From: Pogonophryne albipinna
Taxonomy: Eukaryota; Chordata; Actinopteri; Perciformes; Artedidraconidae
Direction of reading: 5' to 3'
Assembly (NCBI GenBank): GCA_028583405.1
Contig: CM053249.1
Span: forward strand, 40,203,499-40,267,498
DNA length: 64,000 nt
Part shown: one piece after another, positions 10,966-20,848 of the stretch
Numbering within the stretch: the stretch's first letter is position 1
Layout of the letters: the number at the start of each line of letters is the position of its first letter
The notes under the pieces: generated by a model
What the model was told of the DNA's origin: nothing
What the model saw: the letters and a program-made list of their open reading frames with translations, nothing else
Database searches by the model: none
Program-made: the position numbers and the translations under genes

Positions 10966-10971
10966 GATATA
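10966..10971 (+). repeat. Left target-site duplication GATATA
   Basis: GATATA immediately precedes the AG terminus and matches 20843-20848 exactly. Confidence 0.85.
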
Positions 10972-11151
10972 AGTAGTATTAAGGATGCTGTTTCAATCAC
11001 ATTAGTATGCATAAAAAGTGACAGGTGACACGCCCCCAATTATGCAAATGAGCTAAGTCCCGCCTCCATTGTTCGAAACCCTTTGATGTGATTGGGTACA
11101 ATCATGTTAATGAGCTAAGTCCCGCCTCCCATTGTTCGAGATCCTTTGATG

Positions 11152-11530
11152 TGAGATAATAGGTATGTGTGGAATGCCCCCCAGGGTAATGCCTTTGTTG
11201 TCTATTTCTTTGATGTGTTGATTAAGGTAGTCTCTTTGAAGTTATATTGTCTGATAGGTAGGTGTGGAATGCCCCCCAGGGTAGTGCCTTTGTAGTCTAA
11301 TTCTTTGATGTGAGATAATAGGTAGGTGTGGAATGCCCCCCAGGGTAATGCCTTTGTTGTCTATTTCTTTGATGTGTTGATTAAGGTAGTCCTTTGAAGT
11401 TATATTGTCTGATAGGTAGGTGTGGAATGCCCCCCAGGGTAGTGCCTTTGAAGTCTAATTCTTTGATGTGAGATAATAGGTAGGTGTGGAATGCCCCCCA
11501 GGGTAGTGCCTTTGTTGTCTATTTCTTTTG
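11152..11530 (+). repeat. Subterminal tandem repeats, left arm
   Basis: Five copies of a core reading gtgtggaatgccccccaggg, alternating in a higher-order pattern with ttctttgatgtg segments. Subterminal arrays at both ends are plausible integrase-binding regions; that function is inferred. Confidence 0.85.
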
Positions 11531-11924
11531 ATGTGTTGATTAATGCAGTCTCTTTGAAGTTACGCTGTCTGGTCCCCTCAGGGTTGTATAATCTAATTAG
11601 CCTGTGATGTTTGGCCCTTTGAGGTGGTGTGTTATAAGCCTTTTGATGTTAATCTATGTGTGTCTTTGAAGTTAAGTGTGAGACTGTCTAACCCCCTCCC
11701 CGCCCAGGCCTCTCCCCCCTTTCTCCACCCCCTTCCTTTTATCAGATAGGGGGAATTAGATGAAAATAGGAATATTCTCAAATTAAAAAGACAGTAATTT
11801 CCACTTACCAAGTCACCTTGCAAAAAAGAAAAATTGGCCAAGAGACGCCTGTGACAACTTACCGTCCGTAGCGCCATTCAAGAAACGAATGCCTCAGCGG
11901 GGCGGGAGTCAGACGCCTACAGCC

Positions 11925-12096
11925 AGAGATTTTTGCATAAACTTATCTCTTGCCCTCTTTTTTTTTGTCATGTGGAGCGCGTTCATGTGTGCTGGAGGAG
12001 GGGCTATGTGAGGAAGTGGCAGATTTTCGGTTGTGTACTTTCAAATTCTCGCTCACTGGAGCTGGTTTCTCCAAAATGACCTATCCCCTACCTTAA
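11925..12096 (-). mobile_element. piggyBac-type MITE relic in the left arm
   Basis: Read on the - strand, it begins AGGTAGGGGATAGGTCATTT and matches the first 170 bp of the TTAA-flanked MITE at 43750-44127, including tttggagaaaccagct and atctgccacttcct. The inner half is lost. The CA microsatellite adjoins its terminus. Confidence 0.7.
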
Positions 12097-12105
12097 GAAC
12101 AATTA

Positions 12106-12409
12106 ACACACACACACACACACACACACACACACACACACACACACACACACACACACACACACACACACACACACACACACACACACACACACACACA
12201 CACACACACACACACACACACACACACACACACACACACACACACACACACACACACACACACACACACACACACACACACACACACACACACACACACA
12301 CACACACACACACACACACACACACACACACACACACACACACACACACGCACACACACACACACACACACACACACACACACACGCACACACACACACA
12401 CACACACAC
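12106..12409 (+). repeat. (CA)n microsatellite, about 304 bp
   Basis: About 152 CA units with two CG interruptions near the right end. Confidence 0.97.
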
Positions 12410-12746
12410 GTTGGAGTTGGCCTTTTGTGTGGGGGTTAGAGATAAGCCTGGTATGTTAATCTGTATGTTGATTAAGACACTTTCTGTGAGGTGAGAAGCG
12501 AGGGGATGGAGTTCGGAGAAATACGTTCAAAACTAAATAAAACAACCATTATTTTTCACTCACTAAGACACATAAAAACGTTATTGTCCTCTCTAGATTT
12601 GATTCAGGGTTTTGCTCTAAATGATTAGTGCTTGCTAAGGATGTTTTCTTTTCAAGTTTTTGTGAAACTGTTAACTACAAGGAAGTATCTGTTTTTTGCA
12701 AAGAAGGTATTCATATTAATTTAAAAAAGATCTTATTTAGGTTTTT

Positions 12747-13550
12747 GTGTACTACACTCCTTCTAATCCAGGGAGTTTAGGAGGTGTGGATAAACTCCAT
12801 AGAGCTGTACAGAATGAAATGGGTAAACAAGTAAATGTAGAGAAAGTCAGAGAATATTTATCTGAGCAGGATGCATATACTTTGCATAAGCCAGCTCGGG
12901 TGCATTTTGTAAGAAACAGAGTTTTCGTACTCAGGCCGCTACAACAATTTCAAGCAGATCTTTGCGATATGCAGTCACTGTCCAAATATAATGATGGTTT
13001 TAATTATTTGTTAACAGTCGTAGATGTATTTTCGAAAAAAGCCTATGCTCAGGCATTAAAGAAGAAGACGGGCATAGAGGTTACCAAGGCTTTTTGATAC
13101 AATTTTAACACACAGTCAGATGCCCAAAAAGATACAAACAGACGCAGGGAAAGAATTCTTTAACAAAGTTTTTCAAACCTTATTGAAGAAACGAGGTATT
13201 GCACATTATGCAACAGCCAGTGATATGAAGGCATGTGTGGTAGAGAGATTTAACCGTACGCTGAAAACTAAAATGTGGCGGTATTTACAGCTAAAAACAC
13301 TCCTAGATATATAGACGTCTTACCTGAACTAATTGAAAGTTACAATAATAGTTATCAGCGAAGTATTAAAATGACACCAATGCAGGTGACCAAGGAAAAT
13401 GCGGCTCAAGTGTTTCGGAACCTGTATACCCCCTCTAGCCATCGTAAAAAAGCTGCTGCCAAAATGAAGTTTAAGGAGGGGGAGCTTGTAAGGATATCCA
13501 ATTTGAGAGGGGTATTTGATAAAAAATATGAGCAGAGTTTTACAGGGTAG
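12747..13550 (+). pseudogene. Polinton integrase (left arm), two frameshifts
   Basis: Retrovirus-like DDE integrase of the Polinton type. Three overlapping frames follow each other: 12747-13097, 13120-13314 and 13275-13550. Motifs in order: an N-terminal GSLGGVDKLHRAV and TLHKPARVHF block; FQADLCDM with the first catalytic Asp; LLTVVDVFSKKAY; QTDAGKEF with the second Asp; VVERFNRTLKTKMWRY with the catalytic Glu; and a C-terminal EGELVRISNLRGVFDKKY segment resembling the SH3/chromo-like tail. The first shift is at a T run near 13093 and the second near 13280. All three catalytic residues are still encoded. The gene is dead as written. Confidence 0.88.
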
Positions 13551-19195: not shown

Positions 19196-19532
19196 AAAAA
19201 CCTAAATAAGATCTTTTTTAAATTAATATGAATACCTTCTTTGCAAAAAACAGATACTTCCTTGTAGTTAACAGTTTCACAAAAACTTGAAAAGAAAACA
19301 TCCTTAGCAAGCACTAATCATTTAGAGCAAAACCCTGAATCAAATCTAGAGAGGACAATAACGTTTTTATGTGTCTTAGTGAGTGAAAAATAATGGTTGT
19401 TTTATTTAGTTTTGAACGTATTTCTCCGAACTCCATCCCCTCGCTTCTCACCTCACAGAAAGTGTCTTAATCAACATACAGATTAACATACCAGGCTTAT
19501 CTCTAACCCCCACACAAAAGGCCAACTCCAAC

Positions 19533-19708
19533 GTGTGTGTGTGTGTGTGTGTGTGCGTGTGTGTGTGTGTGTGTGTGTGTGTGTGTGTGTGTGTGTGTGT
19601 GTGTGTGTGTGTGTGTGTGTGTGTGTTGGTGGGGGTGGGTGTGTGTGTGTGTGTGTGTGTGTGTGTGTGTGTGTGTGTGTGTGTGTGTGTGTGTGTGTGT
19701 GTGTGTGT
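19533..19708 (+). repeat. (GT)n microsatellite, about 176 bp
   Basis: Counterpart of the left-arm tract in the right arm, interrupted by a ttggtgggggtgggt block at about 19626-19640. The length difference shows that the arms have evolved separately at least here. Confidence 0.95.
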
Positions 19709-19715
19709 TAATTGT

Positions 19716-19885
19716 TCTTAAGGTAGGGGATAGGTCATTTTGGAGAAACCAGCTCCAGTGAGCGAGAATTTGAAAGTACACAACCGAAAATCTGCCACTT
19801 CCTCACATAGCCCCTCCTCCAGCACACATGAACGCGCTCCACATGACAAAAAAAAAGAGGGCACGAGATAAGTTTATGCAAAGAT
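19716..19885 (+). mobile_element. piggyBac-type MITE relic in the right arm
   Basis: Inverted counterpart of the left-arm MITE relic, next to the TG tract. Its presence in both arms shows that the MITE entered before the arms were duplicated. Confidence 0.7.
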
Positions 19886-20284
19886 CTCTGGCTGTAGGCG
19901 TCTGACTCCCGCCCCGCTGAGGCATTCGTTTCTTGAATGGCGCTACGGACGGTAAGTTGTCACAGATACAATTGGCCAATTTTTCTTTTTTGCAAGGTGA
20001 CTTGGTAAGTGGAAATTACTGTCTTTTTAATTTGAGAATATTCCTATTTTCATCTAATTCACCCTATCTGATAAAAGGAAGAGGGTGGAGAAAGGGGGGA
20101 GAGGCCTGGGCGGGGAGGGGGTTAGACAGTCTCACACTTAACTTCAAAGACACACATAGATTAACATCAAAAGGCTTATAACACACCACCTCAAAGGGCC
20201 AAACATCACAGGCTAATTAGATTATACAACCCTGAGGGGACCAGACAGCGTAACTTCAAAGAGACTGCATTAATCAACACATCA

Positions 20285-20662
20285 AAAGAAATAGACAACA
20301 AAGGCACTACCCTGGGGGGCATTCCACACCTACCTATTATCTCACATCAAAGAATTAGACTACAAAGGCACTACCCTGGGGGGCATTCCACACCTACCTA
20401 TCAGACAATATAACTTCAAAGAGACTACCTTAATCAACACATCAAAGAAATAGACAACAAAGGCATTACCCTGGGGGGCATTCCACACCTACCTATTATC
20501 TCACATCAAAGAATTAGACTACAAAGGCACTACCCTGGGGGGCATTCCACACCTACCTATCAGACAATATAACTTCAAAGAGACTACCTTAATCAACACA
20601 TCAAAGAAATAGACAACAAAGGCATTACCCTGGGGGGCATTCCACACATACCTATTATCTCA
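20285..20662 (-). repeat. Subterminal tandem repeats, right arm
   Basis: Mirror copy of the left array, again five copies of the ccctggggggcattccacac core, so copy number is kept between arms. Confidence 0.85.
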
Positions 20663-20842
20663 CATCAAAGGATCTCGAACAATGGGAGGCGGGACTTAGC
20701 TCATTAACATGATTGTACCCAATCACATCAAAGGGTTTCGAACAATGGAGGCGGGACTTAGCTCATTTGCATAATTGGGGGCGTGTCACCTGTCACTTTT
20801 TATGCATACTAATGTGATTGAAACAGCATCCTTAATACTACT

Positions 20843-20848
20843 GATATA
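20843..20848 (+). repeat. Right target-site duplication GATATA
   Basis: GATATA immediately follows the CT terminus. A 6-bp duplication is the size made by Polinton integrases. Confidence 0.85.

What the first reader, a model, noticed from the sequence alone, without database searches (positions are those of the whole stretch)
10966..20848. A 9.9-kb palindromic Polinton derivative that transposed as one unit
Two inverted arms of about 5 kb, each with the same Polinton integrase relic, lie between perfect 6-bp duplications (GATATA) and share 5'-AG termini. Polintons normally have terminal repeats of a few hundred bases to about 1 kb around 15-20 kb of unique genes. Here the whole element is terminal repeat. 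It behaves like a giant MITE or foldback element of the Polinton class. I know of no named family with this layout, though I cannot search. It implies trans-mobilisation by another integrase and a replication-based origin, such as hairpin end resolution or template switching.
Basis: partly seen in the sequence, partly recalled or inferred. Interest (0 to 1): 0.92.

Follow-up and report, generated by a model that had tools for sequence, protein, structure and literature searches.

The report
Palindromic Maverick transposon family in fish
This is one copy of a family of mobile DNA elements, related to the virus-like Maverick (Polinton) transposons, in which almost the whole element is a giant palindrome; several copies sit at different places in the same fish genome, each with its own insertion scar, so the palindromes themselves seem to have been jumping.

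Summary
The window lies in a 1.07-Gb notothenioid fish genome, probably an icefish. The element is 9,871 bp (10972-20842), 95% inverted repeat, between GATATA duplications, with Maverick-type (AGT)2//(ACT)2 ends and an integrase relic in each arm. Of 15 family members with both ends read, 13 have perfect and different 6-bp duplications; 11 of those 13 are 71-100% inverted repeat. Eight keep the centre: palindromes of 12.6-14.0 kb around one 28-nt spacer. The window's copy is a centre-deleted derivative; its spacer is the unequal edge of that deletion. Arms of one element differ by 0.30% on average, arms paired at random by 1.3-1.4%. Shared arm differences near the centre lie on the same side of the spacer in 8 of 9 columns; a mid-arm segment gave one concordant and one discordant column. 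So palindromes seem to be copied as palindromes, with arms partly homogenised. The integrase is broken here, and the same two breaks occur in four elements, so this lineage probably spread with help in trans. Not shown: origin of the founder, the helper, when homogenisation happens.

The parts
10966..10971 (.). left 6-bp target site duplication GATATA
20843..20848 (.). right 6-bp target site duplication GATATA
10972..16229 (+). left arm plus residual one-sided sequence; matches the arm of seven longer family members up to 16229
16226..20842 (-). right arm, inverted; lacks 394 bp and part of the CA repeat relative to the left arm
16112..16225 (.). unpaired centre of this copy: unequal edge of a central deletion with a 4-base overlap at 16226-16229
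11075..11528 (.). subterminal 158-159-bp repeats, left arm (mirrored at about 20285-20673)
11934..12094 (.). fragment about 80% like a repeat at 43749-43902; mirrored at 19720-19885, so older than the palindrome or copied between arms
12107..12410 (.). CA repeat, left arm (right arm 19533-19708, shorter)
12741..13547 (+). integrase (rve) relic, left arm; frame broken twice
18395..19201 (-). integrase relic, right arm; same two frame breaks
13524..14229 (+). 173-bp repeat cluster at the end of the integrase relic (mirror 17733-18418)
15257..15728 (+). second 173-bp-type repeat cluster (left arm)
15728..15823 (+). 32-aa stretch with the family-B polymerase motif YYDTDS (motif recalled; no Pfam hit); absent from this copy's right arm

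Best explanation
A non-autonomous Maverick/Polinton derivative became a near-perfect palindrome once, with a 28-nt spacer, and then spread as a palindrome. Its two identical ends are used by a Maverick integrase, which inserts it with 6-bp target duplications. In this lineage the element's own integrase is broken and no intact polymerase or capsid gene was seen, so enzymes come in trans. Each strand is self-complementary, so a displaced single strand would snap into a hairpin of about 6.5 kb, and repair of mismatches there would make the arms alike before insertion. Deletions then give shorter forms: centre-deleted (this copy) or one-armed (8.3 and 6.4 kb). Shown: the family, the duplications, the shared spacer, arm similarity, mostly constant phase near the centre, and the shared broken integrase. 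Inferred: trans supply, the hairpin step, the timing of homogenisation, and the single origin event.
For: Other copies: 40 scored near-full-length hits at 27 places by my count. Of 15 elements with both ends read, 13 have perfect and all different TSDs. Inverted-repeat fraction in those 13: 100, 100, 99, 99, 99, 95 (window), 92, 90, 82, 75, 71, 27 and 17%. The spacer was found in 13 of 13 loci given to (of 18 loci with a core match), exact in 9, with 1-4 edits in 4. The two ends of each of those 13 single elements are the same over 16 nt while ends differ between elements. Arms within an element differ by 0.296% on average (10 elements); 20,000 random pairings gave 1.428% on average and never below 0.752%; without C14, 0.303% against 1.305%, never below 0.622%. 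Phase: among 9 elements with both inner arms, 8 of 9 columns with a shared allele pair agree in side. Two frame breaks are shared by 8 arms of 4 elements.
Against: The two C14 elements lack matching flanks of their own, and their inner ends differ from their outer ends. Arms are not nearest neighbours in 2 of 10 elements over both segments (C11, C16), and in 5 of 10 over the middle segment alone (C11, C16, C1 at 7.9 Mb, C1 at 40 Mb, and a tie for the window's copy). C16's arms differ at 26 sites and look of mixed descent. One of nine phase columns disagrees, and three of the eight that agree lie in a stretch where one element's arms align poorly; in mid-arm one column agrees and one disagrees. 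Six elements have an open integrase core of 263-266 aa with pN/pS 0.40, one-sided p 0.024, so part of the family may supply integrase itself. No helper was found; the searches for one did not complete. Homogenisation could equally be chromosomal gene conversion.
Confidence: 0.78

Rival explanations
1. Each palindrome formed in place: an ordinary inserted Maverick with terminal repeats was broken, and gap repair copied one terminal repeat and the sequence next to it over the other end. TSDs would stay intact. This is the terminal-repeat expansion proposed for Galileo.
For: It explains TSDs and arm identity locus by locus. The Galileo paper proposes it and says expansion was reported for Polinton inverted repeats, with three references of which one is a 2007 review of repetitive sequences (PMC3573991, passages seen; the references were not seen).
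Against: 13 of 13 loci given to share one spacer (exact in 9), and arm differences near the centre keep their side relative to it in 8 of 9 columns. Independent repair events would not be expected to meet at one base-exact centre. The mechanism remains a good candidate for the single founding event.
Confidence: 0.08
2. The palindromes moved as units, but arm homogenisation happens after insertion by gene conversion between arms on the chromosome, not in a hairpin during transposition.
For: Arm similarity, regional mosaics (C16, C11) and higher arm divergence within 250 bases of the centre (22 of 2,120 against 64 of 21,604) fit chromosomal conversion.
Against: Ends are identical within each of 13 elements down to the last base beside unique flanks, which conversion would often miss. 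The gradient is weak: eight of the 22 differences lie within 11 bases of one element, C1 at 7.9 Mb was left out of that total, and the two sets of elements are not the same.
Confidence: 0.45
3. Assembly artefact (false inverted duplication).
For: Palindromes are prone to misassembly (general knowledge).
Against: The arms differ by substitutions, a 394-bp deletion and repeat length. The inverted repeat ends at the element ends, with a different TSD at each of 13 loci.
Confidence: 0.02

Closest known systems
Vertebrate Mavericks/Polintons (PMC8097293; passages, section 7 and section 16 seen)
   Same: 6-bp TSD, (AGT)2//(ACT)2 ends, rve integrase pointing toward the centre, fish host.
   Different: Intact ones have terminal repeats of 46-1,447 bp in 12.7-24.6 kb; here the arms reach about 7 kb and fill most of the element. 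No intact polymerase, ATPase, protease or capsid gene was seen.
Foldback-like elements, e.g. Galileo of Drosophila (PMC3573991; search listing and passages seen)
   Same: Long internally repetitive inverted repeats, non-autonomous copies made only of repeats, structural lability.
   Different: [quoted passage not shown] enzyme type and size differ.
Palindromic defective adenovirus genomes (recalled; no paper seen: one search found none)
   Same: A protein-primed linear replicon that duplicates one end in inverted orientation and keeps two identical ends.
   Different: Free viral DNA, not integrated copies with TSDs; recalled only.

Membership tests
Maverick/Polinton | 6-bp target site duplication | tested here: met
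   13 of 15 elements with both ends read; the two exceptions are the C14 pair
Maverick/Polinton | (AGT)2//(ACT)2 end motif | tested here: met
   13 of 13 single elements and all four ends of the C14 pair; motif as stated in PMC8097293
Maverick/Polinton | retroviral-type (rve) integrase | tested here: met
   relic: Pfam rve E 0.0034 and 6.5e-5, both under the curated cut-off; 105 homologues of the first piece, the named Lucifuga dentata ones 66-69% identical
Maverick/Polinton | protein-primed polymerase gene | tested here: inconclusive
   only a 32-aa stretch with YYDTDS, no Pfam hit; the motif is in both arms of 10 of the 14 loci (C14 counted as one)
Maverick/Polinton | intact ATPase, protease and capsid genes | tested here: not met
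   no stop-free piece above 125 aa in the left half of C17 (CA-repeat frames left out); none of 10 of its 26 listed pieces matched such a gene in Pfam; other elements were not scanned
Maverick/Polinton | terminal repeats of 46-1,447 bp around unique genes | tested here: not met
   11 of 13 elements are 71-100% inverted repeat; hence a derivative, not a typical member
Galileo/Foldback (P superfamily) | P-type transposase and its TSD | tested here: not met
   integrase relic is rve and the TSD is 6 bp; the 7-8 bp TSD of P elements is recalled
MITE | short (under about 1 kb) element | tested here: not met
   6.4-14.0 kb; size limit recalled

The most novel reading that the evidence does not exclude
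A transposon lineage that lives as a giant self-complementary DNA: each round passes through a single strand that folds into a hairpin of about 6.5 kb, is mismatch-corrected so the arms are renewed together, is opened by protein-primed synthesis, and is inserted by a Maverick integrase, some copies carrying two open integrase cores and borrowing only the polymerase.
Probability: 0.3. Interest if true: 0.88.

Novelty: new variant of a known kind. Interest (0 to 1): 0.75.

Why it matters
Palindromes of 13 kb with a 28-nt spacer are expected to be very unstable in chromosomes (general knowledge), yet eight members with 90-100% inverted repeat, the window's copy among them, were found in one assembly, seven of them with the centre kept. 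The family makes two open questions testable: how Maverick DNA replicates before insertion, and how large palindromes survive and keep their arms alike. It also suggests that a Maverick made nearly all of terminal repeat can still be mobilised, so little sequence may be needed in cis.

Tried and rejected
Rejected: one-off rearrangement and assembly duplication. Rejected: the idea that the 8.3-kb C3 element is a linear progenitor. It carries the palindrome centre and about 27 bases beyond the spacer before its 723-bp terminal repeat, and other one-armed copies (C735, C14 left, C1 at 18.9 Mb, C7) stop at other points, as independent deletions would; a linear progenitor is not strictly excluded. 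Rejected: strand-biased hypermutation as the cause of C16's divergent arm; the changes are of mixed type. No relatives in IMG/VR by integrase or by repeat pattern; a terminal 19-mer matched 17 viral contigs only over 19-22 bases, taken as coincidence; one terminal pattern had no exact match in prokaryote genomes. TSDs alone were not taken as proof of movement as a unit, since repair in place also keeps them; the spacer and phase comparisons address that. Papers: searches showed no palindromic Maverick or Polinton family in their listings (25 of 44 papers listed); only PMC8097293, PMC6431247 and PMC3573991 were opened, in passages or single sections. Repbase and Dfam could not be searched.

C14 had been counted as one element in the arm distances although its two arms are the outer arms of a pair; one search gives the figures without it.

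Full report
Setting. The window lies at G000:C8:40203499-40267498 of a 1,073,210,567-base genome in 861 contigs. A host exon at 39243-40097 is 95% identical over 76% of its length to a Chaenocephalus aceratus protein and 77% over 66% to one of Dissostichus mawsoni; several named hits further down are EME1. The host is thus a notothenioid, probably an icefish (family as); the species is not proven.

The element. The ends AGTAGT//ACTACT and the 6-bp duplication are those of vertebrate Mavericks (PMC8097293). Each arm carries subterminal repeats, a fragment of another repeat, a CA tract, an integrase relic and clusters of a 173-bp repeat. The first integrase piece has 105 homologues, the nearest named ones in the fish Lucifuga dentata.

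A family, not a one-off. The search with the outer 425 bp returned 40 near-full-length scored hits at 27 places by my count; only 40 of 1,355 first-look candidates were scored, so this is a lower bound. Both ends were read at 14 of the 27 places: 13 single elements and one pair on C14. Of the other 13 places, seven were partly fetched without finding a second end (one contig ends too soon) and six were not fetched. All 13 single elements have perfect and different duplications: GATATA, AGGGCT, AGCATA, CCGGTG, CCTGCT, CTCAGG, GGTGTT, CATGGC, GATGTA, CCCACG, GTCATG, TACATG, TATGTG. The C14 pair does not: its elements are flanked by TTTACC/GATAAG and CATTAA/TTTACC, so only the outer flanks agree, and the outer ends also share one end variant while the inner ends have others.

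Structure. In the 13 elements, inverted repeat makes up 100% (C1 at 7.9 Mb, C17), 99% (C16, C8, C1 at 40 Mb), 95% (window), 92% (C3 at 3.2 Mb), 90% (C11), 82% (C191), 75% (C43), 71% (C61), 27% (C735) and 17% (C3 at 27 Mb). The eight that keep the palindromic centre are 12,567-14,020 bp. They meet at a 28-nt spacer. A 27-nt version was found, with up to 4 edits allowed, in 13 of 13 loci given, exact in nine; 18 loci had a match to the core. The folded centre of C17 is a near-continuous stem. The spacer lies in either orientation, as expected for insertion both ways. The window's copy lost the centre: its left arm matches seven of seven longer members up to 16229, and the inverted part begins at 16226 (16218-16223 in some matches), a central deletion with an overlap of at least 4 bases. 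C43 and C61 lack an intact centre too. The two low-percentage elements and several partly read ones look like one-armed deletions with different end points.

How the palindromes are inherited. If a palindrome were copied without exchange between arms, left-right divergence would be at least as old as the family. The reverse is seen: over two arm segments, mean left-right difference is 0.296% in ten elements, against 1.428% for random pairings, never under 0.752% in 20,000. In this count C14 stands as one element although its arms are the outer arms of the pair; without it the figures are 0.303%, 1.305% and 0.622%. Arms are nearest neighbours in 8 of 10 elements over both segments, 10 of 12 over the integrase segment and 5 of 10 over the middle segment. 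C11 and C16 are the exceptions in each; C16 has 26 differences, 19 changes being private to its left arm, and looks mosaic. If instead palindromes were made afresh from one arm each time, inherited arm-specific differences would not exist. They seem to: in nine elements with both inner arms, nine columns show the same pair of letters in two to four elements, and in eight of the nine the letters lie on the same side of the spacer. C1 at 18.9 Mb and C7 were left out because one side is not homologous. The first 500 columns give five of five; the one disagreement and three of the agreements lie further out, where the arms of C1 at 7.9 Mb align poorly. In the middle segment one column agrees (three elements) and one disagrees. 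The reading is transmission as a palindrome with partial homogenisation.

Coding state. The same two integrase frame breaks occur in both arms of four elements, this one included, so that lineage spread while broken, or the breaks were copied between loci. In six others (C14 counted as one) the core frame is stop-free over 263-266 codons in both arms; C8, C3 at 3.2 Mb and C3 at 27 Mb have shorter runs over the segment compared. Over eleven arms of the six there are 10 synonymous and 15 nonsynonymous variants, pN/pS 0.40, one-sided p 0.024, a weak sign of past selection (one arm left out for its length). No other Maverick gene was recognised in the 10 scanned of 26 frame pieces of one arm, apart from the polymerase-like motif.

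Mechanism. Shown: palindromes at many sites with their own TSDs, a shared centre, arm homogenisation, and loss of the own integrase frame in this lineage. Inferred: protein-primed replication in trans, a hairpin intermediate, and mismatch repair of that hairpin. Chromosomal gene conversion is an almost equal rival for the homogenising step. The founding event may have been fold-back synthesis or gap-repair expansion of a terminal repeat, as suggested for Galileo (PMC3573991).

Limits. Ages were not estimated because no mutation rate was sourced.

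Noticed in passing
G000 C14, loci L059, L069, L070, L060 (27187027-27228786): Two family members 21.4 kb apart whose outer flanks share TTTACC and whose outer ends share one end variant, while inner flanks and inner ends differ: possibly a composite transposition of 41.8 kb, or one palindrome with later rearrangement inside.
   Followed up: partly
7836-8370 and 24939-25471: A 535-bp repeat in inverted orientation (96% identical) on both sides of the element; no link to the palindrome was seen.
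   Followed up: partly
400-4318 (+) and 21387-24741 (-): Two sets of long reverse-transcriptase-like (LINE-like, by eye) open frames.
   Followed up: no
27509-28488 and 52062-53040: A repeat pair of about 1 kb in inverted orientation, 87% identical.
   Followed up: no
13524-16083 and relatives (for example L038): A 173-bp repeat sits at several places in each arm, and the polymerase-motif stretch beside it occurs one to three times per arm in most relatives.
   Followed up: partly
element ends of 13 family members: Bases 7-13 of the end vary between elements but are the same at both ends of one element.
   Followed up: partly
L040/L041 (C16): In two segments the left arm has 19 private changes and the right arm none: arms of mixed descent.
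   Followed up: partly
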